From Whalleya microplaca (Eukaryota > Ascomycota > Sordariomycetes > Xylariales > Xylariaceae): a DNA stretch of 64,000 nt. The number at the start of each line of letters is the position of its first letter. The stretch's first letter is position 1. The notes below the pieces were generated by a model. That model made no database searches and was not told the origin of the DNA. It was given only the letters and a program-made list of their open reading frames with translations. The stretch is from positions 992,001 through 1,056,000 of the forward strand of contig MU385715.1 in NCBI GenBank assembly GCA_022497155.1. Direction: 5' to 3'. The position numbers and the translations under genes are program-made. This document shows, piece by piece, positions 28,523-61,500 of the stretch.

Positions 28523-31500
28523 TGGTGATATATGACTATAGAAACAAGTAGTCCCTCTTCAAGTTTTCTAAGTCAGATGGATGTTATGAAGATATAGTTA
28601 AGAGTAACAAGGATAGTTGAAGATTTTGAGTAGCCGAGTTTCAGGTTGGGATGCAGTGAAAATTTTGGTACCAACAACTTATTTTGCGAAACGCCTCCTG
28701 AAGAGCTGCCCTCCTGCGGCACTGGTATATACGAAGGATCTTATAGTCAGTCCCCCTCCCCTCCCGCGCCCCCGGAGGCCCACTGCGGAAAGCACGGGGA
28801 AGGAGCGTGGGGTGATATCCGCCCTACACCATGCCGTCGATATATGTCAGCGTCGAGGTGGTGGCGCGGTGTGCTGGAGTCATTCCTGTTGTCCATTGGT
28901 TATCCGGTGGTGCTGAAAACTGGACGGGACCAACACTGACGGGTGACCGGGCAAACATCTTGGCGATTCGATAAGGAAACAGAAGGCGCAGCACATCGTA
29001 TGCCGACTACCGTAGTCGAATGATCCATCGTGTCTGGGTCCGGATCTCCCAGGTCTCGTTGCTGGTTGTCTGATGATAGGAGTCTAGTCAGGACTATTGG
29101 GCCCTCGATTTAGTCTGACACACCTGACCATTTCCCGTTTGGGGAACAAGTACAAGGTTTCCCATCCAAAAATTGCTTTCCTGAGGTCAATAGTAGCTTA
29201 TCTCCCGAGTGGCCCCGGCCGTCGACGCGCAAGGAGCAGAGTATATCTCGACGCTGTTCTCTGCACGACATCTGGAGAATAGTTGAGGTTAACCGGTGGG
29301 ACCCTAGAAATATTGGTCGAAATCAGAGGTGGCACGTCAGAATTGGGCTATGCAGGTAAATCCACGAACACCGTATGAGTGGAACGGTAGGTCAGGTTCA
29401 TGCAGATGTCTAGATGCATGGCGCACTTGACAAGGCTGCCGCCAAACCGCTGTCCAGCTGCAAATGGCAAACCTAAAAGTTCGGACGATGTCCAAATTGG
29501 CCTCAGCACTTGCCGAAGCGGCTCTGATGCCAGGCCCTCCCAACCGATTCCGGCATGGTCATGTAAGTATGCAGTCTATCACCTCTGACAAGGGTCATCT
29601 AAGACATGGGCCAGGGAGGAAGCCATCCTATTTGGCGGTAGATTGACCGTTTCGCGGTCTCCTGTTTGCCTGGATAGCCGTGGTTCTCGTTCCGGAAAGC
29701 GTTGCGTGGGGACGATGACTGTATGACTGCAACGGCACTGGTGTCTTGAAGGGGTCCAACCCAATCATCGCATGTGAAAACTTGCCGCGAAGTTGTGGCC
29801 AAGAGCTGCGAGAAAATGTACCCCAGGCGGGTTGGGCGCACTAGTATTCGATAGGTATTTTGTCCTAATACCAATACGATGCGGGCGACTGCGCGAGGTA
29901 CCTACTGTCCACACAGTCGATCCCTGCTGCTTGAAGAGAAATGGTCGGCGACCTCAGAACGGGAGGTGTGCGTCATTTGGGCAGAAACTGCAAGTCTCTG
30001 CGTCTGGACTCTAGAGACCCTAGACATCTCGCATCTGCAATGCTGCATCGCATCTTGAGCCGTCATAGTCCCGTGGAGTCTTGCAAGGAGCTGTCCAACA
30101 CCCATACAAGTCAAGTTGGTGGTTGTCACGAAGTCGTTGAAGGCTGCCAAACACACGATACGATACGATAACGGCCTTAATTGTTAGGGATCGCAACCCC
30201 TGGCTCGCATCCGATAAATGATAGTGCTTACTGCGGTTCCTTCAGCTCTTGACGTAGATGTTAAGCTTTGCTGACTCTGATCTCAGCAGGTGAAAGCCAC
30301 CTCAGGTTCGAGATAGGTAATCCAGTGACGAAAATGGAATCAGATTGACACCTGGTCATTGGAGCAGACCCCCTTTACAGCCTTCCTTCCCAGGTACGCG
30401 TTCCCAGGCCATGCACACACACAGGATCTTCAAATTGACAGCTGTAATAGTACCGGTGCCCTTGACAATATTTGCCCACGAGGTTCGCTTCACATCTAAT
30501 TTTCAGCCAATAGCAGTGACGAATAACCTCCGCCCTGAACCAGCATTAGCCACCAGAGCCATCGGCGGCTATCATGATCTAGAGACCTTGATACTCGTCA
30601 ACCCTCAGGTTAATAAGAGAGCAATCGGGTCACGCACTTCTTCAAGGAATGCGCCTTGGCTTAACTGATTTGGAGGTGCGAGCATCGTGATAGGCGGGTC
30701 AACTTTCAGTGCTTCGGGCGAATCGAGACGTCTGTGGCTGAGTTGGCCTTTCTGTTGGAAGCTTAGCCTCGATGGGGTTCTGCAGGTTGCGTTGCATCCA
30801 CCAGAACTCCGGCTGCAATGGAACGAAAGCTGCGGTAGCCGTGGATCATATCTCGCATTTGCCTTCTTGGAGGGCGGCACCTCAACTTAGATCCCAATTC
30901 AGCTTGGATTATTCCGAAAAACAAAACAAGACGTATCTTTTGGAGCTTTCAGTTTAGCTCTATCTGATACGCTTTTCCGAAGGCGTAGATGAGCACACAG
31001 TCTGTATGCACGAGGGAGTAGCTCGGGTCCACTCTAGCATCTCGTTGCTGCGTACTGATCTGCAGCCACGGATGTTCGTTTTCAGTTGCTCTCATTCTAC
31101 GGCTACTTCTCGTAATTGGGAGGCCTGCGGGCCATTTTAGGGCCGTCCCGTCATTTGCAGCGATGATATGGACCAGCGTGACAAGATGTTCAACAAGGGT
31201 TACAGCTCAAGCCCGGTGATGCGCACCAATGGTTACCTATTGCCAACTCCCAAGGCTCAGCATGAGCACGTGTCGGATTGTGAATAGTCTGTCCCCTGAT
31301 GGCAGACCGAAGTTCCTTGTCGGATTTTTTCAATGATGTTATTTCTCGTATATGCTATCATAAAGTTGAATCTAGTGCGATCTTGGTGATGTCCTACGTC
31401 TTGGAGAGGCTAAGCATCTTGACGACATGTAATCCTAACACCCTCCTTCTTGCTACCCCGGTTTACATCGTGCATGGGCTGAGACTCCATGCACCAAAAT

Positions 31501-32429
31501 CTATCTAGATCGAGGGTCTGGAACACTGTCTCGTATATCAAGGAGTGGTTCAGACCCTGAAAAATCGGAAGCTCCCGAGGCAGATCTTGTGCCCCCGAAA
31601 TGCAGCATACCTTGGCAGGTACAACGCCATCTACAAGTTGAGCCTACAGTTATGATCAGAACGGTACTTAAAATAGATGGCTGTGGTGGCTATGCCTTCA
31701 ATATGTGTGTAGGTTCAAAGGTAGTTCCTAGATGCTAGACTCTATCAACCGTTTTTCTCAGGTAAGCCCCAAACCATATGCATCAATATCGGAGTTATTC
31801 TCATCAGACAGTTCACAGTAAAGATACTAGGCTAGTCTTGGGGACATTCTAGCCATGTATGTCAATAGCTGGCGCCTCATAATGTGGTGGTACGAATGTG
31901 ACCCTCGAGGGATATCATTAGTAAGATGGCTGCTCATATTAAAAGCCCCGTATAGTTCTGCAAAGTATTAATTTTAGTAACTTGTTCAATTTCAAATTTG
32001 CGTCTCCGCTGTCCTCAGGCCATCCAGGATATCTTATTAATTGTCTCTGGGCCAGCTTAAGCGGTCTCGCCAATCTCAACTCGAGTTCGGGGTTGGACAT
32101 TACAAGCTCTTCAGCAGCTTTATCTCCAGAAAGTCTTGTTTAGTTCGTAAGAAGAATACTGTTATTGAAATTTCAGCAATAGCACATTGTTTCCACCCAA
32201 TTGGTGCAAATATGGTCCCGAAAGTGGGAGACTGGGGGCCTCATTCTCCTTTGCCCCGTCACTAGGCTATCTAGGAACTAAACCAGAGTAGGTCTGCAGC
32301 AACAAGTATCCTACACAGACCATAAGCATCAAAATACCTTACTCGTTCTCAAATTTGATAGCCTCGAGGCATAGTCGCCATCCTTGGAGTCATTCATATC
32401 ACTCCGAATCCATGACTTCATCCTCATCG
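28523..32429. other. Gene desert of about 3.9 kb
   Basis: No frame carries a recognisable domain or plausible splice pattern. Short frames at 29.3-30.9 kb on both strands show no consistent protein. The first part is the upstream region of the Moco-sulfurase-like gene; the last part should hold the 3' untranslated region of the E2/U-box fusion gene. Confidence 0.5.
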
Positions 32430-35400
32430 TCAACGAAATTCGTCGCTTCGTCCAGCTCGGCCCTTTTCCAACAGCTCCGTCTTCCACTCCTCTCTAGTCT
32501 GAAGAGCATGCTTGCGTACATGTTCCCTAACTTCGTCAGCAAACCCGACTTCGTCATGGTGGAAGCCGAGTGTAGTCATGGTATTCACAGGGTCGCTGTA
32601 TTCGGGCCGGCAGAGTAAACCATATACCGTCTCCAAGAGCATGCCCATACCAATATCGCTTGTCCAGTCGCGATTGAAGATACTATGACAAATCCTCCCA
32701 TGGGTATTGATATTAGGGTGCTTGATTTTGGTCACAAACCGGGCCTTAGGCGCACATGCCGGATAGTCATCATCAGCGTGTAGGTAGAACAGGAACGTGC
32801 CCTCCGAGTACGGGCTTCCCTCTGGGCCTTCCATGACAATTTTCCAAAACGAGATATCGGACTCGCTGACGTAGATGTCGTATACGGGGTGTGTTCCATA
32901 TACAACAACTGCTTGCATCTCTCGCATGAGCCGTGAAGTGCGCAGGTTTGTTCGAACACTACTGAGTCTCTTCCTATTGTTGTGACGCTGGGCGATGGCA
33001 GCAGTTAGTTGGAAGAAGTTATCGTGAAGGTTCGGATGTTCTCTACGGGGAGGAAACACATCATCTGAGACCACTGTAGCCGAGGCACGGGCTCGTGCCT
33101 GTATGAAACTACCCCTGAACTTGAGAGCGTGCTTTGGAATACTCTCAGGTAGCTCAATCGCTGGTCTCTCCGTCAGAGACAAGAATGGTTCCATTTCACA
33201 AATTGCCATTGCATTGACCAGCGATTGCGGATGGAAGCGGTAACTACCTAGGAGATACGACAAGGTGCGTAGGTCTTGGTTGTCTTCTACCCCTAGGCAA
33301 ACGCTGTCGACAATCGTATTTGTATGAAGGAGACTCCAGCAGACACTGTGGCTCGTGTTGACTTTTGAATGAGTATCTTTGCCATCTGAGATGCAGATGA
33401 TGCGCTTTTTGACACCGGGATAATTTGCTGCATATTCTTCGACTTGATCACTCGCAAGGGCTAGGGCATCCCATAGAGCAGTATCTCCATTTGCTCCCAT
33501 ATCCACAGTTGCCCGCCTGAAGTTCTCTAATACGTGTGATATCGGCATAGCAACTTGACTCTGACTGGAGAAGCTGACTAGTCCCACGTGCGTTTTATAG
33601 TTGTACTAACTCATATCAGTGTGTGCCAGAAGAAACTGTATTGTGATATACTTACGGCTAGCATCCTGTTGATAAGGGCCTAATTATGTCCATATCAATA
33701 TCTTGCATTTCTCGAATTGAAAATTTACGTACCTCAAACATCTGCTTCAGGGCATCGAGCCGAGTTAGTCCGCGATTGACGCATTTGTTATCTCGCTTGC
33801 GAATGAAAACCTTGAGAACCATTGGTTCTTGACGGTCGTCAGAGCTAGAGTTGTCGTAGACACCAATATCCTTGTGAAACAGATTTTCTGGTGCTAAACG
33901 ACCCCAGCAATTATCCTGAGTGAGATAGGTAGCAAGTTTATCAACACTTTCCCGTGAGCAGCCATAAAAGAAACCATCACCCATGCTCTGGACACGAGTA
34001 TAAACTTGTACTGGGCTTAGGCTACAATTTGGATTTTTGCCCAACTGGTAACGCCAATACTTCCAAACCACTGAGGCCAGCGATTTGATAGTGTCACGCT
34101 TCACCCAGTAGCTGAACAGCATTTCATAGTTTCCACCGTAGACTTTGATTAGGCACATCTCGTAGGAGTTTTTTCGAGAGGGGCTCAAGATGATACTTGG
34201 TACAGGAGTATCGTCCACTATACGTATTGTGATGTGATCTCCATTTCTGATCCTGTGCAATGATGACAGAGCGAGCGAGGAACATGGTTGGAGAGGCCCG
34301 GTGGTCTCCGTCCAGAGTTGGAAAACCGGGAATCTTGCCTTCAAACCTCTAAATGCGACCTTGTGCAGATCTTCCAGGCTTATGTATGGCCGAATACAGC
34401 GCTGGAACGAACTGACGCGACTATCAAATGTAACCGTGATGTACCCCGGGTAAGCTCCTTGCCGGCAAAAGCCATCGCCATTGACCCATCTCGCCACGGC
34501 ATCACGTATATCCTGATTCACGATGAGAGATGTATCGTGGATCCCCAGACCATGCATAGGAGATGATTTACGGATCGTGTACCATTGTTCTATTGATCGG
34601 CGAGAGTATGTGTGCCCGTCAACCGCCGTGACAGCATCGTCCATCAAGGTATATGAGATTGGGCATTGAAGATGCTCAGGCATACGAGTTACATCGTCTG
34701 GTATATTAAGAGTGTGCTGAGACATTGTCGAACCTGGAATTCTATCACCAAAAGACCATGTCCAATTTTGCTCAATCCCTCGAGACGGATAAGTAGCTCG
34801 ATATCGCAGGAAGTCCTTGATATGCTCTTCGTGGGTTTTCAATCCAGCCCAGAAAGACTTCAGCTTTTCCAGCTCAGTCTCGAGCTCCGGAATTTCGCGT
34901 CGCAAATAGTAGAATGTGTGGGCGGATTCACGTTTCTTTCCAAGGCTTTTCGACTTTAGGGTGATCTCAGAAGATAGCACCAGCCTTAAGGTGTGTAAGA
35001 CCTTCTCAGCAGCTTGGCTTCGATGGCTTTCGGCTGTTTTAGCAATGATAGCAGTCATGTCGTCAAAGCTTTCGTTATTGGCTAGGTCTTCTTTCACATC
35101 TTCGACGGAGGCTCGGCTGTAGAACCTCGGTTCTACCAGAGCCTCGCCCTCTTCAGGATTATCACCCTCTTCAGCATTTGCAATATTGTCGTCATCAATC
35201 TCGCTAAAGTTTGCCGTGTGGCTCATACTGGAGCTGCAATCGACGCAAAACATCAACACCTCGTCGGGGGTTAAAAGTTTTCTCACCTCAGCACAACCGA
35301 GGGCATCAAAGGCGGCAGTGCCTTCGGCCTGGTACCTTTCCAGGATGTTGACGATGAGTTGCTCTATGACGCCCGGGTCAATGGTCTCTTCTCCATACTT

Positions 35401-37356
35401 CGGTCTAAATACGAGCGAAGATTTCCCCGGATTCCCACATGGTTCCTCACCGGTGTAGACTGCTAGATGAGCGTTGCGATCGAAAGTCAGGCATGGTGTG
35501 ACAGCTGATGTAAGTTGGTTCGATCTGTACACCGAGAGCTTGGTTTGACTGCAAAGTTCCGCTAGGCGACCCAAATCGCTAAGTTGATCAAGGTCGATAG
35601 CTGTATTGATATTCTCGGAATCTTTATAGCGGTAGCAGCTTGCTAATTTGATGAAAGAGACTGAAATCTCACGAGTGGTCCCTCCACTAAGGAGGGCATA
35701 TCTTGCTGTGTCAGGGTTGATGTATTTCTTGACCATAAAGGTCTGGAGGTGGCTCTCAGCTAATGGTGCTGCCATCTTGAAAGCATCGAATAAGTTCGCC
35801 TCCACTAGTCCATTGGGTGTATCGAATGCGTGCATGACGCCCTCGCCTGTCATATGATCTCGAATGTCTACCGTGTGGAGCGCAGAAATATACGGTAGGG
35901 CGTCTGCATCAGAGTCATTTTCAGCTGGAAGCTTCAATGCTTTTGCCATCTCTAACACAAAACCAAAAAACAATCGAGCACCTTCGAATACCCTCGAAGT
36001 ATCAAATCCAGAGATGGCGAGCGGCACAAAGCTATTCAAGACCTCAAACACAGCATGACTAAGCGCAGCGCTCTCAGCAGCGGCAAGGGTCTTGCCTTCA
36101 ATCAGCATATGGAGAGAACGGAGAGCAGGCGGGAATCTTGTGAATAAATCAAAGACGTGCAAAATAGCATCTTGATATCTCTTATCATCCTCTTTGTCTT
36201 GCACAATAGATGTAAAGACTCGGAGCGAAGAGAGGAACATTGCCATTCCACGGTCAGATTGCACGACCTTAGGCTCCCAAGGAGCACGAGAGCGGAATAT
36301 GGAAGACTTCCCGACTAATGCAGGGGTATCGTCAGCTGTAGCGCGATGAACGGCGTATATGTCTATGGCATCCTCTACCATCAGTCTTTGGAGGCCAGCT
36401 TCTTGCAGGGTGGAACTAAAACAAGACGGATGAATTGGAATCTCTGACGTGTGAAGATCGACAACCATAGACTTCTGCTTGTCAGTGTCATCCTCGACGT
36501 TGATTCGAGAATGAATAGGGGTATGACGTTCCTTGGAGCAGATTGTGACGACAGGGGTCTTCTCATAGACGTTGTTATCAGTGGGATCGAATTTCGCTCC
36601 AAGAAAATTGATTTCCTTTCTCGTTTCCAAATTATAGCCGAAGTTGCCAAGCAAAGTTTCTTTCAAGGCGTCTTTGGTTCCTCTCTGAAGAAGTATCCGT
36701 TCCACTCTGCTCTTACCATGAATGACCAGAAAATGGGTGGTCTCGGAAGGGTCACTGGCGATTTTACTACCAAGAATACAATTGCACTCATAGGTCTCAA
36801 CGTGTTCCTCGAACGTGGATGTAATTCCCAGATGCTCGTTGATATGGCGATGAAGCTGACCGATGCTCGCAGACGATGGTATATTCAAGATTGGACAGGT
36901 TTCTTTCTTGTTGGCAGAATCAGGTGTTATTATACGAAGAGAGATTACACCTTCTTCGATCTTATATTTCTTTACGGCATTAGTCTGGGGCTTGTACACT
37001 TGATTCTTGATTTCTCAGATAAACACATGGTTCCTTACCTCCTGGAGCTTGCGCGACGTTGCCACATTGACTTTCTCGGTAACAACAGCAAAAAGCCTTT
37101 CATTCCGAGGGTTTATGATGATATCCGATAGCACATCTTCGAAGTCAATGATGGGGCCTATCTCACTGTCTCGGTGTAGTACTATGGTATGAGAATCTGC
37201 TGACAACAACAAATTTTGCCTCGCGAGTCTGTCCCAGAGATTGTCGATAAATTCAAGCACAATTCCTTCGGAACTGAATGGTACTAGAAGGACGACTGGA
37301 TTTCTTGTTACAACACCGGCGCCTCGTGGCACAATAGTGACACAGTAGGATTGCAT
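32430..37356 (-). CDS. E2-U-box-VWA fusion protein with ubiquitin-like segments
   Basis: Model: join(32430..33605, 33656..33679, 33733..36990, 37039..37356), 1591 aa; introns 50, 53 and 48 nt, all phase 0. Residues 1-170 contain two probable beta-grasp segments. Residues 300-680 are mostly helical and unrecognised. A VWA domain begins with FCVDCSSSMS, the MIDAS DxSxS at Asp690, Ser692 and Ser694. About 480 residues then intervene, holding a coiled stretch, a U-box (Cys882; CPI..LMDDAV, DGHTYSRRSIEQW) and two more beta-grasp-like segments (YITVTF...IRNGDHITIRI). The VWA resumes with RLDALKQMFEALINRMLA and GLVSFSSQ, with the MIDAS Thr1242 and Asp1274. Residues 1423-1565 form an E2 fold: GPEGSPYSEGTF, HPN at 1496-1498, catalytic Cys1506 and SDPVN. 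Ubiquitin conjugation is inferred from intact E2 and U-box motifs. The acceptor of intron 1 could lie 6 nt further on. The start at 37356 is the first ATG in frame. Confidence 0.9.
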
Positions 37357-38703
37357 GATTCTCGGCGTCTCGAAATGATGCAATACGGTTCAATGAACCA
37401 AAAGGATCTCAGCGCTTTACGCGCGCTGCAATGTCGATGGAGGTCGTGAATTTACGAGCGATGTAGGCTGAAAGAGAACTGGGGGTTGGTTATTATGATA
37501 GGGGCATCTGGGAAGATTGACGGGTTCCCTATCGAGGTTTATAAACACGAAATTTTCAGTCATGATGCCAGATAATAGGTAGTTATCGATTCTAAATGAA
37601 TAAACTTCCTACTAGAAACGTCTATAAGGCACATCTCTTTCAAAGCTGTAGGTCTGTCTCCCCTAGTTCTATGGTTTCAGGAGCCTACAGATGCTGAAAC
37701 CCGAGATCTTGGGTGCTCCCAAAGAACCAATAAATCACATTGAGATACCTCTGGCATGATGTCTTACTTGGTTCATATTGAGAAGATTCCATATAATTCT
37801 TCTATTCGTTGATGCTGGAAAGAGAAGGTTTACAAGAACAGGTTTCACTAGAAGGATAGTTAGATTATGTAGTTTATATCTATAACAATATTGAAAGTTA
37901 CATGTTAAAGACCTTACTTATTTATTATATTGAACCCCCATAATATTGAATCTATTTCTACACATCTACACGTCGTATTTACCCGCCTTGTCAGCCAGAG
38001 AAGAAGAGATGGAACAGAGGTAAGGAGGCCACAATGCGTACAGGCGGCTAGACCTTACAGATCATCTATGCTAATATCGATACTGAAAGATATAAAGCTA
38101 TATGTCATCGCTTACTAAAAGTGAACGCTCCTAGTACATAATGACGGTTAACAAACCCAGCGAGTAAAGTCTATATCCACAAGTAGTAAGGAGATGTTAG
38201 AGACTCTATGCCCTCATTTTCGTCCCATAATGCAAGCACAGAGGGAGAGACACCTGGAGCGAGTTCATACCAATTTAGATAGCGGAGCCTCTTATGTCGT
38301 ATGAAACGGAAGAGATGGTTATACATAAGGAAATAAAGGCGTTGTACCTCCCATCCCCTATTTCGGCAGTTCTAAGAGAAGGAAGGAACCATTTATAGAT
38401 TGCTAATGATGGATGTACATGGATTGTATGAGACCTTAATAACAATACAAGAATCTAATGACCTATCGCTGCCTTCGCAACTTATATAAGTACTAGCCTT
38501 GCTACAACTCCGATGCTGCGATTTTCTCTTCACTTGACGAGATCGATTCTGTGCTTCTCAGGGTACAGCGGGGCACTATCAGAAGAGTGATAATCTGCAA
38601 GCCTGGTTTATCATTATGCAAGGTACGTTGATCATCATAGATATTATCCTCTTGGCACCCACAAATTTTACACCACTGGCCTATCTTGAGGCTTTCAAAG
38701 CCC
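37357..38703. other. Intergenic, AT-rich, no gene seen
   Basis: This should contain the promoter of the E2/U-box fusion gene and the 3' end of the GFA-like transcript. The stretch 37.6-38.5 kb is AT-rich with all frames closed. No RNA gene is recognised. Confidence 0.55.
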
Positions 38704-39283
38704 TCAATGTGCAATCTCTTGTTTCTGAAATAGACCCTAGCATAATATATGAGAAATGTGTACTTACAATCAAATCGTTTGACACAGCAGACTTACCTCA
38801 ATCGCTGGCATCCATGGATCTCTCAATTTGCAGAAGAACTCCCCCTTAGGTTCGACTTGGCCTCTCGCGTGATCCTCCAACGTGCCATAGAAGACGTATA
38901 TATTATCCCCAGCATTGGCCTGACAACCGAGTACCTATTAGCGAGCCCATTCAGTTACTAGCAGTATCCGGAATGACACAGCCCAAGACGCAGTTGATAC
39001 TCACACCGTATTCCAACAAGCTCCCTCCACAAGTACTGCAGAACTCTCTATGCAGCACCACCCCGCTTCCGTTATCCGCCTCATGCACCCTTACATGATC
39101 CTGCCCTTGCGTGATCTGGAACGAGGACCTGGGAATCTTAGTCGTGATCCCATAGTTGCATCCGGTGAACTTCTTGCAGTTGAGACAATGACAGATACTG
39201 GTGCGGGCCTCTGAGTCTGGGTCATTGAGCGTGATGGTGTAGCGGATTGCGCCGCAGTAGCAGCCACCAGGGAGAGGCACCAT
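38704..39283 (-). CDS. GFA / CENP-V-fold zinc enzyme
   Basis: Model: join(38704..38736, 38797..38919, 39005..39283), 144 aa, introns 60 and 85 nt, all joins in phase 0. The spliced protein shows the complete glutathione-dependent formaldehyde-activating (GFA, PF04828) cysteine pattern: GGCYCGAIRY near the N-terminus, CHCLNCKKFTG, FCSTCGGSLLEYG joined to ANAGDNIYVFYGTLED, then PKGEFFCKLRDPWMPAIE joined to GLFQKQEIAH. The two zinc sites are built from the paired cysteines. Family members are small cytosolic zinc proteins; many fungal copies have no assigned substrate, and some bind glutathione adducts. The length is normal for the fungal single-domain form. Confidence 0.92.
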
Positions 39284-39949
39284 TTCGGATAGGTAGCAGC
39301 TATATCGTTGAGAGGCTAGTTTTCGATTATGAGAACCTTGAGAGTCAGGTTGGTCGGAATAATCGTGTACTTCATTGTGTTTTGCGCTTCCAATCGGCGG
39401 AAGCTCCGATGCTCAATGATGCTCGTCCGACGTCATGAGCATCTACTCCGCACCGGGCTGCCCCGGCTCGGGCCGTCGTACGATACTTCTCCATACAGTG
39501 TCCGAGATCAATTCGATCTAAAATTAGATAAATGTAAGGATATTCAATACGCAATATTCATCTAGAGTTGCCAATGGCGTTGATTTTATACCATATTCCA
39601 TATCCGATGCTTGAGTACTATCCTTACTCGACGCCTTTCAAGATGATGTGCATGGATAAATTCGTACGAGACCTAGATATAGAATACTGCCCACATTCGT
39701 ATCCGTTATGTCATATTCGCCCTCAATGTGCTTAGGAGCAACACCATCAGTGAAGGTCCAGGCGATCTCGAGAACCACACGCGCTCGAAGCTTCATGGTG
39801 GCCTTCAATCTTCGCGAAATGCATGGGAAACATGACAGAAAAAGAGCATCTTATATGCCTCAACTACCCGGTACGGAGCCCCATAACAATATTCAGAGCT
39901 GTATGTCATTGACAGCATCACTGCCCTACTTCCACACTTCCCTATTCAA
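39284..39949. other. Intergenic, no gene seen
   Basis: This is the upstream region of the GFA-like gene and the 3' flank of the epoxide hydrolase gene. No coding frame is supported. Confidence 0.6.
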
Positions 39950-41465
39950 TCATGATGCAGATAACTCTTGCTTGTTGGTCACCTTCCAGGCTTTCATGAT
40001 GTACTCTTCGACATCAGCAAGCAGCTCATTCGGTTTCTCCATTGCCTACAATTACATCGTCAGTAAAAATCCATTAACATAAATCAATAGAGCTAGATTT
40101 TACAACATACCGGGAAATGACCACCACTCTCATGCTGGTTGTATGACACCAGGTTACAAGACTTGGCCGCCCAGCTCCGCGGGATCGGGACGATCTCGTG
40201 AGCGAACAACGAGTATCCGCAAGGCTTCTCGATATACGGAAATTCGAGCGCTGTCAGCTTCGTGACCTGAATGGAAACACACTTAGTTCTTTTCTTCCAT
40301 GTCTTCGTGGGGATTTGACTGGGTTTGGGGGAGGGGTGGAGGGTGGAAGAATTGGGACGGGGAACGTACCTCACTGGTATCCGGGTTGCGCGCCTGTAGT
40401 TGAGAAGTTAGTTGGTCATTGGTCTACAACCATGGAACAAACGGTGATCTGACTTACTCCGCGATTATGGTACATGGCTCGTGGCATAGTATCTGTCATC
40501 CAATATAATGTCACGCTTTCGAGTATTTTCTCAAGTGGAGGATCTTCGTCTGTCCATTCGAGGATCTTCTCTCCGATCCTATGTCATTGTTAGCGAATCA
40601 ATATCAAGAAGTTGCTATTGTATCTTCCTATATCTCACCAGCTAAGCAGTGCTAATGGACTAGCACTCAGTGCCAGCCCTATCGTGGCCGGCCTTGTGGC
40701 TTGCTCCAAGGCAAACGCATTTCCCGTATCCAAGAATTCAGTAGCTCTTCGCACTGCCTTCCTCTCTAGGTCGTCGCTCGGGGGTTCGTCTAGTTTCCCC
40801 GGAGCCATCATGTTCACGTGTATGCCTTTGCAAGCATCATAGCTTATCGCAAGGAACCTGCTCACGAAACTCCCGAGGTCTCCACCCTGGGCCAGATATC
40901 CAGACTCAAACCCTAAGCCGACCATCAAATTGTTCACCGCTCCGGCAGCTACGTCGACTCCGTAGCCTATCTCGACCGGAGGGCCGGATGAATACGCGTA
41001 GCCGGGGAGCGAGGGGACGATAACATGATACGGCAGGTCCTCTGGAGAGTACCGATGTTTGAGAATGTCTAGGATATCCAGGAACTCGCAGATGGATCCT
41101 GGCCAGCCGTGGAGGAAGGCGATAGGGACAGCGTCGGGCCTCTTGGAGAACAGGGCCAAGAACTGGATCTCGACTGTGTTGCCTTCCGCGTCCTTCACGG
41201 CGGCCTTGAAGTTCGGGAACGAGTTGTTCCGTTCTTCATGCTGGCGCCAGTCGAAAGTATTTAGCCACACCTCCTTGGCATTCTCTAGCCAATCTCTCTG
41301 CATCCCATACCTCCGGCCAACGTGCGTGTTCTCGAACACGGCAGGGGCTATCGGTGAGAGCTCCAGCAGCTTCTCGAAATGCTGCAGCTTCTCCTCGGCA
41401 ACATGGGCCTTGAATGACTTTACGTCGAGTATCACACCTGCTGGGAGCTTTGCGTAATCCGCCAT
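39950..41465 (-). CDS. Epoxide hydrolase (microsomal type, EHN plus alpha/beta hydrolase)
   Basis: Model: join(39950..40045, 40111..40266, 40370..40393, 40458..40578, 40639..41465), 407 aa. All four introns have canonical ends and the joins keep frame. The EHN region (residues about 1-100) carries LNTFDWRQHEERNNSFPNF. The alpha/beta hydrolase part follows: HGWPGS oxyanion motif at 119-124, VPSLPGYAYSS, nucleophile Asp196 in AQGGDLGS, and catalytic His374 in ESGGHFP. The exon of 24 nt (ARNPDTSE) is very small but required to keep the frame and the P...VTKLTALEFPY continuity. The enzyme should hydrolyse epoxides to diols, using an Asp ester intermediate, as in fungal detoxification and secondary metabolism. 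No clear N-terminal membrane anchor is present. The start at 41465 is the first in-frame ATG. Confidence 0.93.
40370..40393 (-). other. 24-nt micro-exon of the epoxide hydrolase gene
   Basis: It is flanked by CTACAG on the upstream side and GTACGT on the downstream side and encodes eight residues, ARNPDTSE. Skipping it would delete eight residues without changing frame, so exon skipping could give a second isoform. Confidence 0.75.
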
Positions 41466-42849: not shown

Positions 42850-44391
42850 TCACACAGCCTGTGGTGAGGCTGGCTGGCCGTTCTTCAAGCAGTCTTGGCA
42901 TGTGTTGCCAACAAAATGTTCTTTTGCCCCTTTGTCTTTTTTCTTTCCACATTCTCTACAATGAACATGGCAATTATAGCGATCGCATTGCTTAACAGAA
43001 CATTCCACCTTCCAACGACAGTCCTGGCCGAGATGTTGCTGTCCGCAAGGGCACTTCTTCAAGGCGCATTTCCTGCCCGAGTGACCTTTGATGCCGCACA
43101 TGCAGCAACGGTGAGAACACATCATTGCGTTCTTGTGCCGAAAATTACCAGGCGGATGGGGTGCGCCACATTTCCTACTACAATGAACGAAGCATTCTGA
43201 GGCTGTGTGGTGTTGTGGAAACGGTCGGCATTTGCATCTATTGGCCGCCTTTACAGTGCAGGAACTCGCCTTATGAAAGGGCGAACTGCAATATCCGCAG
43301 GTTTCAGGACATTTCCTTGTATGATGGCTATACTGAGCGCAGTTGGCACATGGATGCTTGAATTGTGCTGATGGTTTGTCTATTCCAGGACCTTCGAAAA
43401 TCCATTTTGGTTTGTCAGTGAACATAGCTCGAATATGCGTTCGACTCAAACTCCTCCGGCGCGACATCTTGTCTAATTCAGACAAAGGGCGACGAGGGAA
43501 GAAGAGGACATAGTATTGCTCTTCATATTCTGGGTACACTCCGCTTTGCATAATGGTTGTACTCCATGTCCCGGGCGGCGGTGTACTGAGAGATCGGCGT
43601 GGTCTACCACGATGTAGTCCTTGAATGTTGCTGAAAGGAATCTGTGCTGTTGGTTCCTTTCCTTGCGATTTGCATTTGTGAACAGCCTTAGGGAGGTGGA
43701 TCCACAATTGATAACTAGCAATGAAACACGGGTCGATTGAGAACTGCATACTTGATGGCCTATCGAGCGGTAACCAATGACCACCAGAGAACAAAAAGTT
43801 GTGGTAATGGGTTGCGGCGGGTGGCTGAAGCACCTTTAAATGCTCTTTCATGTCTCGCTTCCATTCCGACGCTGATTTCGGCTTTGGCCTTAGCGAACGG
43901 CGACGGAAATCCTTGAGCCAGATTCGCATATGAGGATTAACTTCAAGAAAATACCGTTGAATAAGCCCTAGAATCATCGTCTCAAGAACAGGCCACTGGT
44001 TAATACGTTCATCAGAGCTGTACAGGTTCATGGTTTTCCAGGCCATATATTGTGAAGAAGTTATCCCTGAGCAGAGGAATAAAAGGGTTTTCTGTTGAGT
44101 TTTTCCTGAGTGAAGTAACTGGAGTGCCTTCTGTTGAGTGACGGTTGAGCCAGTTTTAAGTAACTTTGACATGACCTGTATGTCGAGCCCTAATTCGCGA
44201 TTCTGAGCCTTGAAAGGACCAAAAAGAGAATTTCCTTCGGTTACGTTCAAGTAGACTCTTGGTTTCACTCTCCGCGGAAACATGTAGTCCTCCATCATTC
44301 TATTGATCATGACATCGCGGCCACTAAGGGGTCGGTGTTCGTACCGACTAAAATCCAGGTCGATGCCATTGAGGGGATAATGTGGAGTCAT
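42850..44391 (-). CDS. Cysteine-rich protein with zinc-knuckle array
   Basis: A single exon of 513 aa starts at ATG 44391; the in-frame extension above it begins without ATG. The N-terminal 330 residues match nothing I recognise and are basic, with an RPRRSLS patch. The C-terminal 165 residues hold an array of Cys/His motifs. Three have exact retroviral-type C-x2-C-x4-H-x4-C spacing: CANCAQYSHHTRKC, CGYCSSPFHKASSC and CCMCGIKGHSGRKC. Others are variants, for example CPCGQQHLGQDC. Such knuckles bind single-stranded nucleic acid in Gag and CNBP proteins, so nucleic-acid binding is the natural inference. No reverse transcriptase, integrase or protease lies nearby, so it may be a stand-alone lineage-specific gene or a domesticated Gag-like protein. 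The frame is intact despite its gene-poor surroundings. Confidence 0.72.
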   Translation of the reverse strand: MTPHYPLNGIDLDFSRYEHRPLSGRDVMINRMMEDYMFPRRVKPRVYLNVTEGNSLFGPFKAQNRELGLDIQVMSKLLKTGSTVTQQKALQLLHSGKTQQKTLLFLCSGITSSQYMAWKTMNLYSSDERINQWPVLETMILGLIQRYFLEVNPHMRIWLKDFRRRSLRPKPKSASEWKRDMKEHLKVLQPPAATHYHNFLFSGGHWLPLDRPSSMQFSIDPCFIASYQLWIHLPKAVHKCKSQGKEPTAQIPFSNIQGLHRGRPRRSLSTPPPGTWSTTIMQSGVYPEYEEQYYVLFFPRRPLSELDKMSRRRSLSRTHIRAMFTDKPKWIFEGPGIDKPSAQFKHPCANCAQYSHHTRKCPETCGYCSSPFHKASSCTVKAANRCKCRPFPQHHTASECFVHCSRKCGAPHPPGNFRHKNAMMCSHRCCMCGIKGHSGRKCALKKCPCGQQHLGQDCRWKVECSVKQCDRYNCHVHCRECGKKKDKGAKEHFVGNTCQDCLKNGQPASPQAV

Positions 44392-44915
44392 ACTCAAGGT
44401 GAGATAGCTTCCGAAGATACTCTTGAATAAATTCGACAATGGTCATCGAATAAACAGTAAGTGAGGTTTGATGATATGGCTGTACCCCGTCGAGACCACG
44501 ATGGGTCACCTAAGTAATAGTTGGATTATGGAGAAGCACAATCCGATTTTCACCCTCAGCAAATGTGCCTTGTTGGATACTAATTCCCGGTGACATGAAT
44601 TATTTGAATGAAATGATTGATGTTTGCTTGTAAAAGGTTCAGGTTTAGGTTTGATTCAGTCCGTGTAATGAGCCTGCCTGGATCTTGGGTGTGATTATGG
44701 CAGCTGTCGTCTTAGGGACCAGCTGCCTTGCGGTATGAGTTGTGGCTACGGCAAGCTGATGAATGTGGCTGAAGTGGAAATCTACATCTCTGAGGGCACT
44801 TCACGTGATCTGATGACTACTTCTGAAACTTCTCACAATTAGCGAGACCTCCACTTATTAGAATACAACTCCAATTCCGGCTCCAATCGCTTTTCTTGAA
44901 CCACGGCTACATACC
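44392..44915. other. Short intergenic spacer
   Basis: No coding potential is seen. It separates the zinc-knuckle gene from the broken PigL_N-type fragment on the same strand. Confidence 0.5.
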
Positions 44916-45182: not shown

Positions 45183-46705
45183 ATTTGACCCTGTGTCGGT
45201 GTATTTGAGCCCACATAGAGGCGAAATAATTGATTTCATTAGGAATTGTAGCTGCCGTGAAGTTCATGATATACTTATTCCCTCTACCGGAGCTTTCTCA
45301 GCCACACTGTTGGTTCTTCGCCGAAATGTAGGCTTCCTTGAGGAAAGTGCCTTACAGACCCCATAAGGCTAAATATGACTGGTCGTACATACTACAAAAT
45401 GTAGATACTACCTTGCTGCCTCCTTGTACAGTTTATATTCTACCAACAATCGGTCATGTTGGGTGGCAGTGCTTCCAAAATCCTCAGCTTGAGATGAGGG
45501 GTGAGCATATCTGCCTCACTCATATCGCGCCATGAGATTCATGTACGTACTTCAGAGCTGCTGTAGTAGGCCACAGCGTTGACTGTTTCTCTTGTCATGT
45601 TACATAGAGATATGCACACTCAAAAACTCGACTGCATCATCTTATCCAACGCGAATAGCTGTTGTTCCACCTGGCTCCCCTGTCTCGGTGTCCCCAGTTT
45701 CTCATGAATGTTGTGCCCAAGTCACCTAACCAAGGTATAAGATAAGTGATAAGAGTTCTTATGTTTTGTATCTTACTGTATCATGGAAGAAGGCTTAGAA
45801 CTTTGAAGCAATCATGTGATTTCTGATCTCGGCGATGAATCTCGTGTCTAGTACTTAGGTTTCTATCCCCTCTCTGACTTACATTCTGGTCCGCATCCTC
45901 CCCCATCAATTAAGTTCCTGGGCAGACTATATCCCATACAGTCGGCTCGTACCGAGTAACCGTGCAACTCTATTTAAACATATGCACATGCTAACATATT
46001 CGATACTGTATTCTACTACTGCTGGGGGGTGGATGTAGTTAGGCCTAGTCACGTGCTGCGGAGGTGAGCCTTTAGGCTCACGCCGACGCCTTAGATTAGC
46101 TCAGACTTAGAGGAACACACACCCTTACAGCCCACGAACGTTTTCTACTACTACTTGAATAGAAGTAACTTTTTTCTTGTATAATGAGATTAGGTTCAAG
46201 AGCTACATTCAATCTGTTGGTAAGGATGCGGAGATTATTTACGGGGTTAGTTTTGCGGCTTTAGGTTGGAGGTTAGGGTTCCGGGTTAAGGTTACTTGGA
46301 GTTCGTATCGAAACACGTCTTTGATTCAAGTCGCGATGAAGCCCTGGTAAACTGATAATGGCGACGGTGACGGAATAATGAGTCGATGGTAAGAAAAATG
46401 GGCAATGGAAAGGAAATTATGCAGTCTGATACCTGTTTGGATAGATTTTACACCAGGTAACAGGGCCTAATCAGCAAGTATGCCGGCCAAAATCATTCCT
46501 CCTATTACGACATCTTCGACAGGGCAAATACTATCCACCAGCGCATGGGAACCAAGCACCCACCGCGTCTCTTGATCACTAGGGAGCCATATATATATGT
46601 GTGCGGGTTGTCCTTTGGACACCCATCTTACAGCAGTCAGGGCCTGTTGTTTCTGCCACTGGCGTATTGTTAGCCGTGCCAAAGTTCCCAAACATTATAT
46701 CCACC
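45183..46705. other. Intergenic, no gene resolved
   Basis: Nothing convincing is coded here. The last 80 nt before the GMC gene, read in another frame, give SQGLLFLPLAYC followed by a stop. This may be a decayed end of a cytochrome domain (see findings). Confidence 0.5.
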
Positions 46706-48837
46706 ATGGGCCGTACTAACTTTCTTGTAAGACTGCTTCTCGTAGCTAGCTACAATGAGCCATTCTCCCGTATGGCTGCGCTGGCGGACACAGCCGGAGG
46801 CACGCGTAGTTACGACTGGCCCACACGAACGACATCCATATCTATACCAACAACAACGACCTTCACATCAACGATAACGACTTCAACATCGGTGACAACA
46901 TCAACTACAACCACTACTGACACTTCTTTTACTACAACAGACACGTCCACTACAGACACATCTACTACAGATACGTCTACTACAGACACTACTACCGACA
47001 CTTCTACTGATACTTCTACAACTACCACTGACACCACAACTACTACTGACACTTCAACCTCCACCGATACTTCAACTTCCACTACCACCACCACTGAAGT
47101 ACCAATCCCCAGTGTTGCTTATGACTACATCGTAGTCGGTGCCGGCGCCGGAGGTATCCCTCTAGCAGACAAGCTGAGCGAAGCCGGCAAAAGCGTGCTG
47201 CTCATCGAAAAGGGGCCACCATCATCCGGAAGATGGGGAGGCACGTTCGGGCCCGACTGGCTCACCGACCCCAACCTGACCTGGATCGATGTTCCGGGCC
47301 TGTGCAACCACATCTGGAAGGACTCCACGGGCATCGCCTGCACCGACACGGATCAGTTGGCCGGCTGTGTGCTCGGTGGCGGCACGGCCATCAATGCTGG
47401 TCTCTGGTGGAAGGTAGGTCGGCCCCCCTGTCCCCTGAGATGAAGTTGTAATTTGGAAGTTTCATTTTGAGAGGAAAATGCTAACGTGGTGCTTGTTAGC
47501 CGTACACCTTGGATTGGGACTACAACTTCCCTGACGGGTGGAAATCCACGGATATGGACGAGGCAACTGATAGTGTGTTCTCTCGGATCCCTGGCACCGA
47601 CACGCCGTCCATGGACGGCGAGCGGTACCTCCAGCAGGGCTTTGATGTCGTCGCCAGTGGGTTGGATGCTGGCGGATGGTCTCAAATTACTGCGAACGAT
47701 GAGCCCGATCGTAAGAACCATACCTTCACTCATAGCCCATTTATGTACTCTCATGGCGAACGAGGTGGCCCCATGGCTACTTATTTAGTGTCTGCTAGTG
47801 AGAGGGACAATTTCGAGTTGTGGATGAACACCTCAGTCAAGAGAGTTATAAGAGACGGCGGTCACATCACCGGTGTCGAGGTCGAGGCCTACATGGATGG
47901 AGGCCACGCCGGCATCGTCAACGTTACCTTGGATACTGGCCGAGTGGTCTTGTCTGCCGGTGCATTCGGGTCGCCTAAGATCTTGCTGAGGAGCGGCATC
48001 GGACCTGAGGACCAATTGGCTGTGGTCCAGTCATCAACGGACGGCCCGACGATGATCTCCAGCGACTCGTGGATCTACTTGCCTGTGGGTTACAATTTGG
48101 ACGACCACGCCAATACCGACACGGTCATCACGCATCCTGATATCGTTTTCTACGACTTCTATCAGGCCTACGACGACCCGAATGACAACGACAAGGAGCT
48201 GTATCTCGACGCCCGATCAGGGATTCTTACCCAAGCAGCACCCAATATCGGCCCCATATTCTTCGACGAGATCACCGGCGCGGACGGTATTGTCCGACAG
48301 CTCCAATGGACGGCCAGAGTCGGAGGCAGCCACGGCATTCCCAGCCAGAACGCCATGACCATGAGCCAATACCTCGGGCGCGGGAGCAATTCTCGAGGCC
48401 GCATGACCATCACCCAGAACTTGGACACGGTAGTCTCCACGGTCCCCTACCTGCACGAGGAGGCGGACGTGCAGGCCGTCATCCAGGGCATCAAGAACCT
48501 GCAGTCGGCCCTGGCGAACGTCGAGGGTCTCACGTTCCAGCTTCCGCCGTCCAACACGACGGTCGAGGACTACGTCAACGACATGGTCGTCTCGACCGCC
48601 GCCCGCCGTGCAAACCATTGGATCGGAACGAACAAGATGGGTATCGATGATGGAAGGGCCGACGGCGGTTCGGCGGTGGTGGACCTCGATACCAGGGTTT
48701 ACGGCACCGACAACCTGTTTGTGGTGGACGCCAGTATTTTCCCTGGCCAGGTTAGCGCCAACCCGTCGGCATACATTGTTATTGTCGCCGAACACGCGGC
48801 TGCGAAGATGCTTGCCCTAGATGTTCCCTCGCAGTGA
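46706..48837 (+). CDS. Secreted cellobiose-dehydrogenase-like GMC flavoprotein with Thr-rich linker
   Basis: Model: join(46706..47413, 47500..48837), 681 aa, with one 86-nt intron (GTAGGT, GCTAAC, GTTAG) joining AINAGLWWK to PYTLDWDYNFPDGW. The start ATG has a good context (CCACCATGG). A short hydrophobic N-terminus (FLVRLLLVAS) may be a weak signal peptide. Residues about 40-130 are almost pure Thr/Ser/Asp repeats (TTTDTS), a typical O-glycosylated linker. The GMC flavin domain starts with VVGAGAGG at 145, followed by GGGTAINAG, and ends with NHWIGTNKMG (His609) and SANPSAYIV (Asn657), the catalytic His/Asn pair. The WWKP..WDYNFP signature is typical of cellobiose dehydrogenase (AA3_1). In complete CDHs a haem b cytochrome domain precedes the linker; it is absent here. 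Oxidation of cello-oligosaccharides or related sugars is likely, but the electron acceptor is open. Confidence 0.9.
46835..47100 (+). repeat. Coding minisatellite for Thr/Ser/Asp linker
   Basis: ACWACWGACAC-like units repeat imperfectly through this part of exon 1 and encode TTDTS/STTTD peptides. Length variation between strains would change only the linker length. Confidence 0.8.
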
Positions 48838-58586: not shown

Positions 58587-61500
58587 TTATAGGACAGGTG
58601 TTAGGTAGTACCTGAGGATGTCGTAGGCGAGTTTATAGTAGAGCGCATCGCGGCCTGTCCCCTGAGTAGAAAGCAAAGCTTTCCCCTCGTCAAGGACTTC
58701 GAGAAGTTCTCGAAACCGTTGCACGTGCTGTGGCTCTGAAATGACCTCTTCCAACACATGCTTGTCTAAGCATCTCTGCAGGATATCCCCGTCAACGTGC
58801 ATATTCAATTTCGGGTTGACCTCAGGCTCGAAGTCATCGTCGTCGCCGGCCTTACTAGAGGAAGTATAAGGGTAGATCGCCCGTGACGCCATGGCAAGGT
58901 TCTGGATGAATCTGAGTAGTCGCCACGCATCCTCGCTTAGTAGTGCAAAGCTTTGAAGTGATCCATCAATGCTGAGGCCCAGTATATCCGAGCCAGGTGG
59001 CCCGCTCTGAATGCATCCGTAGCGCGGTCTGTTCTTGAATAAATTCCATGGACTTCGCGTGTTTCCTCGCACGAATCTCCTGACGGAGGCTTGCAGTTCT
59101 GCACGGAATACCAACTTTAACGGTCGCTCATCTTCGGAAGGGGACCATAAGCCGTGAACTCCACACATCGGATCGGACAACATCGTGATCGACTGGTGAC
59201 GCTCCGCGCTTAAGAATGATCCAACCTCGATAGAATGTAAGCAACTCCGACAAGTGTCGTCTGTATGCAGCTGGACCATCTGATCGCTTTCGATGGCCGG
59301 GTCGCTTTTATAGTCGAGTATTATAAGCGAATGCTTGGTGGTAAGTACATGCAGCCTTCCATCTACCACTTGCATCCAGGACGCTGGGGATGGCAGCTCA
59401 TACTTTTTCGTGACCTTAAATCTCTCCTGCTCAATGATGTTATACTGGAGATGGTTTCCCACACATAGAAAAAGTCCTTGTTCGGTGGTTGTAACCGACC
59501 GAATAGGGCCACCGTACACTGATTTGAACTTGGTCCAAAAACGTATTCGGCGAGGCATTCCTGTCTCTGTCGGAGTATTCTCGGGTTCGGCCGAGACAAT
59601 CAGGAGAAGGCCTCTATCGTCCTCCTTTCGTACGGAGAGGACATACCAGTCTGCGTGGTAGCCTCCAGCGCTCTTGTATCTCCAGCGTGAAAGAGAAACG
59701 ACACCGGCGCTTGCAAACCCTAGGCCATCAATATAATCAACCTCATAGTAAGTAGTGGCCGGTTTGCCTTTTTCTCTCTGTATTTTGAGGGGGTGGGATA
59801 TGTCATGTCCTGTCGTAGGGTCCAGGAAGTGCAAAGAAGCTAACCCGTTTCTTGAAATAACGGTAACAAGGGCCTCGAGCCTTTGAGAATATAGGATCTT
59901 CACCGGTGTGCCTCGAACGGGTAATGAACGTGGAACTGGCTTTGGCCGCCGTTGCAATTCTGTGATTAGTATTCGTGGCCCGGCAATCATCACCAAGGTT
60001 GATTGGTCGTATTCAGGGACTTGTTGATGCAACGTGGTCACCGAATTAATCGACGGCGAAGGCATCCCAGGGTCGTATACATCAGTCGGCCAAACGCGGT
60101 GCAACTCCTCAAAGTGGCCTCCTTGCTGATCTGTTACATATTTTGTCATTATTGCCATCTCAGCATCGCCGCAGACGAAGATTGAGCTGGAGTCCTCGAT
60201 CATGGTGCCAGGGAAAACGGAGGATGGCGACATGCCATATTTATCCCTACTGACTTCGTAACTTGCGGAATAAGACGAATCGAGCTGAATGGTAAGCACG
60301 TCCCCATTCTTGGTTCCTGCCACGAGGGTTACGCCCCCTGACTGCTCGCCGGAAGAAATGATGCTCGTCAACGCTCCAAAGGCATCATTGTCTTCAATTT
60401 CTCTATTATTATGGCCAGCATTTCTGGAATCTACGCAACGATTACTTAGCTGGTCCAGAGTTTCAAGGGTATTACACTCGACTTACCGAATTTCGATTGT
60501 AGCTCTATTAGAATTGGCGTTTCAGAGCTCTGATTAGAGACTTCCGTAGGGAAAATCGCTAGGGTTGGGCCTCTGCCATGCCAGAGACCAGCCATGACAA
60601 CGGGATTGCTAGCAAATTTTCCTAAAGCAAGACATGTGACTTCACCTTCAATCTCAAAGGCATGTCGCAACGAGATGCTCGTATCGTCAACATTAAGCAC
60701 GACGACCTTAAACGTAGACCCAGAATAAATTGCTATGGCAATCTTGCTCCCCTGTATAGTTGCATGTGCTACATTGACTGAGGGTTCTTTTATTATGTCA
60801 GCTATCGGATGCCGAGAACTGTGAACCACGCACTATTAGTAACTAATTCATTTCGTTTGGACATATTGACTCACTGCTTGGTTGGCGTCACTAGTATAAT
60901 ATGTGTCGTTGTAATCTGTACCACCCTGTTATCGGCGTCTTCGGCTGCTAGTGTCGTTGACGAGAGATCATAGGGTATCGTATCATCATCTTTCTCTGAC
61001 ACCTCAGTCAGGCTCCCCGACAGATGGAGGACAGCGGATCTATGAGGGAGCGCTAGAAGCAGATAAAAGCCATCCTCCAGGCTCTCGTCAAGAGTGGAGA
61101 TGGCCCAACACTGCCTGATATGTGACGAATATGTAAGATCTAAGCCAATTTTGGCTTGCATGCCGTATCGAAACTCGGTAATAGCACCCATGATGCCTCT
61201 ACCACTGCAGGCAAAAATTCTATCCGGTTGTAATGGAGAAACAGGGTCGCCATTCGCGTGAGCCAAGGCAACGGAATTTCTCGCATGATCATCAATGGTT
61301 CCCTTCGTGGAACTATTAGCCACGACGAAGTCCACCGTCGGAGACCAGTTTGGAATCCATCCTATTCGTTGTGGATGCTGTCTTGCTTCAACCTGGCGGT
61401 GATTATAACGTTAGCCAGCGCAATTGTAGCAGGGAAAGGTACCAGGTCAACTAACATTCCAAACCGCACCGGGGCCAGAGTCTCCACCAGTTACTAGAAC

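What the first reader, a model, noticed from the sequence alone, without database searches (positions are those of the whole stretch)
32430..37356. Single protein combining a U-box (E3), an active-looking E2 and a VWA domain
The sequence directly shows U-box residues (CPI, DGHTY, IEQW) and an E2 fold with HPN and catalytic cysteine in one 1591-residue frame. E2 and E3 are normally separate proteins, and BIRC6 or UBE2O-type fusions have a different layout. I know of no described fungal system with this architecture. It could be a self-contained conjugation machine that selects its targets through the VWA or the helical middle region.
Basis: partly seen in the sequence, partly recalled or inferred. 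Interest (0 to 1): 0.9.

Follow-up and report, generated by a model that had tools for sequence, protein, structure and literature searches.

The report
Fungal one-piece E2/E3 ubiquitin enzyme
A fungus carries one large protein that joins two ubiquitin-tagging enzymes, with one of them built into the middle of a third domain; it belongs to a widespread, already named but apparently unstudied family.

Summary
Window 37356-32430 (minus strand) encodes one spliced protein of 1584-1591 aa with a U-box, a VWA and a UBC (E2) domain. It is not a two-gene artefact. GenBank has it as F5B20DRAFT_577291 of Whalleya microplaca. Of 95 relatives in the first search, 83 carry all three Pfam domains. Four fungal records already bear names such as 'bifunctional E2/E3 enzyme'.

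(1) The VWA is split: its first strand and metal-site motif lie 487 residues before the rest, with helices, the U-box and two ubiquitin-like folds between. (2) A fish relative named 'R795-like' has an uninterrupted VWA and a UBC, no U-box, so the U-box part looks inserted; a giant-virus E2 matches the predicted fold over 1138 columns. (3) The E2 keeps its Cys (83 of 84), but its usual RING/U-box contact loops are altered: Asp at the Ala96 position in 82 of 85.

Best reading: a working E2/E3 ligase selecting substrates through the VWA and Ubl parts. Whether its U-box uses its own E2 is open. New variant of a known, unstudied kind.

The parts
32430..37356 (-). whole gene, four exons, one protein of 1584-1591 aa
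   Evidence: splice model; P0003 100% identical over residues 660-1589 and differing only by five residues at intron 1; no second copy seen in own genome
37072..37356 (-). N-terminal beta-grasp (ubiquitin/PB1-like) domain, aa 1-95 (exon 1)
35929..36267 (-). helical region with conserved FLSSL motif, aa 346-458
   Evidence: weak colinear match to the fish relative P0152 (second block, E 3e-4); helices in model
35224..35268 (-). first strand and MIDAS loop (DCSSSM) of the split VWA domain, aa 679-693
   Evidence: joining it to the downstream VWA raises VWA_2 from 36.5 to 58.2 bits, scrambled control 39.1; structural match begins at this strand
34789..35109 (-). helical / coiled-coil part of the insertion in the VWA, aa 732-838
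   Evidence: long helices in both models of relatives
34480..34677 (-). U-box, aa 876-941, inside the VWA
34210..34443 (-). ubiquitin-like fold A, aa 954-1031, inside the VWA
33802..34164 (-). probable second ubiquitin-like fold B, aa 1047-1167, inside the VWA
   Evidence: strand-strand-helix-strand-strand order in the P0007 model, 644-760; weak tandem-Ubl hits of the P0096 model; not matched on its own
33162..33771 (-). rest of the VWA domain, aa 1178-1346, interrupted by two introns
33656..33679 (-). 24-base exon 3 (ALINRMLA)
   Evidence: N1189, R1190 and A1193 (P0003 numbering) invariant in the 17 rows of A1
32952..33161 (-). linker between VWA and E2, aa 1347-1416
   Evidence: poorly conserved in A1; pLDDT under 50 at residues 1000-1008 of the P0007 model
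32499..32951 (-). UBC (E2) domain, aa 1417-1567; catalytic Cys codon at 32688-32690

Best explanation
It is a fungal member of the 'R795-like' bifunctional E2/E3 family: a single-chain ubiquitin ligase. Shown: domain content, order, split VWA, conserved active sites. Inferred: E1 loads ubiquitin on the C-terminal E2 Cys. The U-box is mounted inside the VWA domain and acts as the E3. The VWA metal site and the ubiquitin-like folds bind substrate or partner proteins, so that ubiquitin is delivered to what the VWA holds. Because the E2 has lost the usual SPA/Phe62/Ala96 contacts, the coupling between U-box and tethered E2 is probably not the textbook one. Either the interface has been rebuilt in cis, or the U-box also recruits a free Ubc4/5-type E2 for the first ubiquitin and the tethered E2 extends the chain.
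For: Domains by Pfam and by predicted fold of relatives P0007 and P0096. Conservation in A2, 90 of the 95 hits (P0041 and P0094-P0097 left out): Cys 83/84, HPN Asn 84/85, MIDAS D 84/84, S 84/84, S 83/84, T 90/90, D 90/90, U-box W 90/90 and loop-2 Pro 90/90. Landmarks in the same order in 76 of the 76 proteins where all four patterns were found, of 150 tested. Split VWA: joined-piece test with scrambled control; fold match to a TFIIH subunit VWA, 184 of 192 residues, model residues 272 to 940. Uninterrupted VWA in the fish relative, which aligns at 28% over 365 residues, E 7e-41.
Against: No activity, partner or substrate is known; eight text searches on the architecture gave no paper on the fungal protein in their lists (lists of 17, 79 and 85 were capped). 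E2 contact loops are non-canonical: no Pro at the SPA position (0 of 85 ungapped rows), Asp for Ala96 in 82 of 85, no Phe at the Phe62 position. Changing these positions weakened Ubc4-Rbx1 binding and is described as disrupting U-box/RING binding; yet in that second paper the same changes did not stop binding to the IFT172 U-box-like domain. A Phe is present one residue on in 58 of 85, so the surface is not wholly lost. The fish relative has no U-box. No inter-domain placement could be read from the models (pTM 0.66 and 0.57).
Confidence: 0.62

Rival explanations
1. The U-box works on its own tethered E2 in cis through a co-evolved, rebuilt interface, so the protein needs only E1 and ubiquitin. 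(A special case of the main reading.)
For: 83 of 95 relatives keep both modules with the VWA. Asp at the Ala96 position is nearly fixed (82 of 85) and a basic residue precedes the U-box loop-2 SSP (R 75, K 4 of 90), which could pair (the pairing is inference).
Against: Textbook contacts are absent; no contact was tested.
Confidence: 0.4
2. Division of labour: the U-box recruits a free Ubc4/5-type E2 to attach the first ubiquitin, and the tethered E2 extends the chain, as UBE2C/D and UBE2S do for APC/C (recalled). (A special case of the main reading.)
For: U-box E2-contact positions are conserved (I/V/L/M 90 of 90, Pro 90 of 90) while the tethered E2 lacks the matching loops. Its best single-sequence PDB match is UBE2S, with the similar loop WTAELG.
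Against: The lead of UBE2S is small (82.4 against 80.9 bits for Ubc13). With a family profile the best matches are a 'Ubiquitin-conjugating enzyme E2 8' (4x57), 7xed_A and Ubc13, and by structure Ubc13 leads. The UBE2S likeness is confined to short loops.
Confidence: 0.3
3. The E2 or U-box is catalytically dead and the protein is a scaffold.
For: One member of 84 has Tyr for Cys (P0019), and six of the 90 aligned rows have a gap there.
Against: Of those six, three end inside the UBC (P0050, P0091, P0092), one just after the VWA (P0071), and two end in letters that look out of frame (P0076, P0093), as expected of cut gene models. HPN Asn (84 of 85) and D1531 (85 of 86) are kept.
Confidence: 0.06
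4. Two neighbouring genes were fused by the reader's frame.
For: Three introns had to be inferred from sequence; transcripts were not seen.
Against: The U-box lies inside the VWA domain; order is the same in 76 of 76; GenBank has one gene model.
Confidence: 0.01

Closest known systems
Fungal records named 'bifunctional E2 E3 enzyme' (Lecanosticta acicola P0023; Pseudocercospora fuligena P0054, 'putative') and 'ubiquitin-conjugating enzyme E2, von Willebrand factor, type A, U-box' (Septoria linicola P0042, P0053)
   Same: Same three Pfam domains; 43-47% identity over residues 660-1589.
   Different: No difference in kind was seen; these are database names, and no functional work was found.
R795-like protein of the fish Scophthalmus maximus (P0152); R795 itself is a mimivirus protein (recalled, not seen)
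   Same: VWA followed by UBC, and a weakly matching helical FLSSL region before them; 28% identity over 365 residues.
   Different: VWA is uninterrupted and no U-box is found by Pfam at E up to 1; the record stops inside the UBC before the Cys.
Hokovirus HKV1 'E2 ubiquitin-conjugating enzyme' A0A1V0SEK3, 1329 aa (giant virus, Klosneuvirinae)
   Same: Predicted structure matches the P0007 model over 1138 alignment columns, E 1.6e-50, 20% identity.
   Different: TM-scores are only 0.43 and 0.38, rmsd 19.1; whether it has the U-box insertion was not seen, and its sequence was not obtained.
Mb_UBOXa-type U-box/VWA proteins of Monosiga, Naegleria and others (PMC3087547, passages read)
   Same: U-box and VWA in one protein, described there as ancient.
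   Different: No E2 domain is mentioned in the passages read; layout not compared.
TFIIH subunit with VWA (4wfq and others; that it is Ssl1/p44 is recalled)
   Different: 9-14% identity; fold likeness only. Pfam Ssl1 matches stay under its cut-off.
UBE2O, BIRC6 (E2/E3 hybrids)
   Same: E2 within a large multidomain protein (named so in PMC11354881, passages).
   Different: Pfam finds only UBC, VWA and U-box families here, no BIR; UBE2O-specific regions not compared.

Membership tests
R795-like bifunctional E2/E3 family | VWA followed by UBC, colinear with a record bearing that name | tested here: met
   profile E 4.3e-69; E 7e-41
R795-like bifunctional E2/E3 family | E3 module (U-box) in the same chain | tested here: inconclusive
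   met in the fungal protein, absent by Pfam in the fish one; R795 itself not seen
E2 ubiquitin-conjugating enzymes | UBC fold with catalytic Cys and HPN motif | tested here: met
E2 ubiquitin-conjugating enzymes | E1-dependent ubiquitin thioester | not testable with these tools
   needs assay
E2 with canonical RING/U-box surface | SPA loop and Phe62-type residue | tested here: not met
   no Pro in SPA column and no Phe in Phe62 column (0 of 85 ungapped rows each), Asp at Ala96 in 82 of 85; Phe next to it in 58 of 85
U-box E3 ligases | U-box fold with hydrophobic loop-1 residue and loop-2 Pro | tested here: met
   equivalence to CHIP I235/P269 is recalled
U-box E3 ligases | ligase activity with an E2 | not testable with these tools
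   needs assay
VWA domains with metal site | DxSxS, T and D of the MIDAS in one fold | tested here: met
   fold predicted on a relative, metal binding not tested
BIRC6-type hybrids | BIR domain | tested here: not met
   not among the four Pfam families found at E up to 1
UBE2O-type hybrids | conserved regions before the UBC (recalled) | not tested
   no comparison made

The most novel reading that the evidence does not exclude
A U-box plus two ubiquitin-like folds was inserted into the metal-binding VWA domain of an older VWA-E2 protein, turning it into a ligase whose substrate (or ligand) binding at the VWA could directly move the embedded U-box, while the tethered E2, blind to ordinary RING/U-box surfaces, serves only this chain or extends chains started by a free E2.
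Probability: 0.3. Interest if true: 0.75.

Novelty: new variant of a known kind. Interest (0 to 1): 0.52.

Why it matters
It is a conserved, single-gene route for E2 and E3 action for which I found no functional study, present in many filamentous fungi, with relatives in a fish and, by predicted fold, a giant virus. An E3 module embedded inside a ligand-binding domain gives a testable model of how binding could switch a ligase. Its odd E2 surface lets one ask how an E2 becomes private to one E3.

Tried and rejected
Two-gene artefact: rejected, the U-box lies within the VWA and the order is fixed. Loss of E2 in relatives: ten of the 95 hits lack the UBC label. Three end inside the UBC (P0050, P0091, P0092), one just after the VWA (P0071), two end in letters that look out of frame (P0076, P0093), two run off after MFEV, where our intron 2 begins (P0094, P0095), and two stop earlier, P0096 inside fold B and P0097 near its end. 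They look like cut gene models; a true loss is not excluded for each. Assigning the E2 to one subfamily: not possible, Ubc13, UbcH5-type and UBE2S score alike. Prokaryotic relatives: ten loci, of 260 stretches matching a pattern, match in the VWA only, within query residues 1176-1324. Viral contigs: three scans, no relative confirmed, so the giant-virus relative rests on the fold search alone. Neighbouring genes offer no clear link; no RNA family in 30000-40000, no tRNA in the window. Co-evolution of U-box and E2 surfaces was not computed: too few sequences. A further N-terminal ubiquitin-like fold is suggested only by strand order. In one search the helical N-terminal region was not among the well-covered parts; that says nothing about its fold.

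Papers: ten searches ran; some asked about Ssl1 and UbcH5 mutants. Passages were read in PMC11354881, PMC13327516, PMC13290226, PMC4378952, PMC2964712 and PMC3087547; all others were seen as listings with the start of the abstract. The search for R795 with mimivirus and ubiquitin returned 0 papers. UniProt could not be looked up.
Full report
The gene. Window 32430-37356, minus strand, holds one gene. Four exons (37356-37039, 36984-33733, 33679-33656, 33605-32430) with GT-AG introns give 1589 codons without a stop. The GenBank model P0003 (F5B20DRAFT_577291, Whalleya microplaca) has 1584 aa, is 100% identical over residues 660-1589, and differs from mine only by five residues at the first intron. 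The 24-base third exon encodes ALINRMLA; its N, R and last A are invariant in the 17 rows of A1, P0003 among them, which supports the splicing. No second copy was seen in the genome; the other matches lie in the E2 part and look like ordinary E2 genes. Transcripts were not available.

Domains. Pfam finds UQ_con at 1423-1560 (95.2 bits), U-box at 875-941 (37.2 bits) and VWA_2 at 1178-1274 (40.2 bits), all over cut-off. Among 17 relatives chosen from the 95 hits, UQ_con, U-box and VWA_2 are found in 17 of 17 at E up to 0.1, and Par3_HAL_N_term in 7. By the Pfam column, 83 of 95 hits have all three domains, 10 lack UBC and 2 more lack only the VWA label (P0041, P0081). The ten without UBC look like cut gene models (details under Tried and rejected). 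The search scored only the 7994 candidates sharing most words, so 95 is a lower bound.

Order and conservation. Four landmarks (DxSxSM, U-box core, SDG of the VWA, HPN of the E2) were all found by pattern in 76 of 150 fetched proteins and stand in the same order in 76 of 76, with U-box to SDG distances of 353-426 residues; the other 74 miss one or more patterns and were not examined one by one. In alignment A2 (90 of the 95 hits; P0041 and P0094-P0097 left out) the catalytic Cys is kept in 83 of 84 (P0019 has Tyr), HPN Asn in 84 of 85, the MIDAS residues in 84/84, 84/84, 83/84, 90/90 and 90/90, U-box Trp and the loop-2 Ser-Pro in 90 of 90. Both enzyme parts therefore look to be under selection.

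The odd E2 surface. RING and U-box domains usually grip Phe62 and the Ser-Pro-Ala loop of the E2 (recalled). Here no ungapped row of 85 has Pro in the SPA column, Ala96 is Asp in 82 of 85, and no row has Phe in the Phe62 column, though the next residue is Phe in 58 of 85. Alignment with other E2s of the same genome places these columns. The double change F62A/A96D almost abolished the TrUbc4-TrRbx1 interaction (PMC13327516, passages). F62A or A96D of UbcH5a is called disruptive for U-box/RING binding in PMC13290226 (passage), but in that paper neither stopped binding to the IFT172 U-box-like domain. The tethered E2 therefore may not pair with a U-box in the usual way, while the U-box itself keeps the residues for gripping an E2. 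By sequence the E2's best single-query PDB hit is UBE2S (82.4 bits, Ubc13 80.9); with a profile, 'Ubiquitin-conjugating enzyme E2 8' (4x57), 7xed_A and Ubc13; by structure Ubc13 and UbcH5b/Ubc13. No subfamily can be assigned.

Relatives. Named members belong to Sordariomycetes, Dothideomycetes, Leotiomycetes and Eurotiomycetes (classes recalled from genus names, only Whalleya was looked up). A tree of 35 rows that I chose from named records has the four Eurotiomycete rows as one group, but Sordariomycetes in two places that supported branches keep apart, so old duplication with loss, or transfer, is likely (the fish row is a long branch, 37% filled, and its place unsure). The profile search also found a fish protein named 'putative bifunctional E2/E3 enzyme R795-like' (P0152, E 4.3e-69). 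It aligns at 28% over 365 residues, has an uninterrupted VWA (profile 1-106) followed by UBC, and no U-box by Pfam at E up to 1; a ubiquitin-like match in it is under cut-off. It stops before the Cys. The simplest reading is that an older VWA-E2 protein received the U-box insertion in the line leading to these fungi. Loss in the fish is not excluded. A giant-virus E2, Hokovirus A0A1V0SEK3 (1329 aa), matches the P0007 model over 1138 columns at E 1.6e-50, with TM-scores 0.43 and 0.38. That R795 is a mimivirus protein is recalled. U-box/VWA proteins, with no E2 mentioned in the passages read, are described as ancient in Monosiga and protozoans (PMC3087547).

Is it known? Four fungal relatives already bear names such as 'bifunctional E2 E3 enzyme'. 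Eight text searches on the architecture listed no study of the fungal protein, its split VWA or its function (20 of 30, 15 of 16 and 12 of 141 papers were listed in 17, 79 and 85). Most papers of subscription journals are outside that library.

How it probably works. Shown: one chain by sequence, conserved E2 and VWA active sites, a U-box with its E2-gripping residues, a U-box set inside the VWA. Inferred: E1 charges the E2; the VWA and ubiquitin-like folds hold substrate or partner; the U-box promotes transfer. I give about 0.4 to direct cis pairing through a rebuilt interface and 0.3 to division of labour with a free E2; both are special cases of the main reading.

Noticed in passing
window 61450-62595 (-), with 58590-60482 (-) downstream: RSE1/DDB1/CPSF1-type first beta-propeller (Pfam 109 bits) in the first stretch; the second has no Pfam match at E 0.001 but may be the continuation of the same gene (inference).
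   Followed up: partly
window 46583-48837 (+): GMC oxidoreductase whose upstream open frame carries a long threonine-rich repeat (arrays at 46848-47095).
   Followed up: partly
window 42853-44442 (-): 530-aa open frame with many cysteine pairs like zinc knuckles, no Pfam match at E 0.001.
   Followed up: no
gene family tree: Sordariomycete members fall in two separate places, one next to Dothideomycetes of the Mycosphaerellales kind (recalled), suggesting old duplicates or transfer.
   Followed up: partly
P0111 (Exophiala dermatitidis), alignment A4 columns 201-300; P0105 (Rhinocladiella mackenziei): P0111 has an extra cysteine/histidine-rich, RING-like stretch in its N-terminal half, absent in the other four rows of A4; P0105 carries an extra Pfam label PF13445, a RING-type family by recall.
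   Followed up: no
P0055 (Cudoniella acicularis): 1866-aa record with extra Pfam labels PF08659, PF13561 and PF00106 (short-chain dehydrogenase type, recalled) in the same protein; may be a fused gene model.
   Followed up: no
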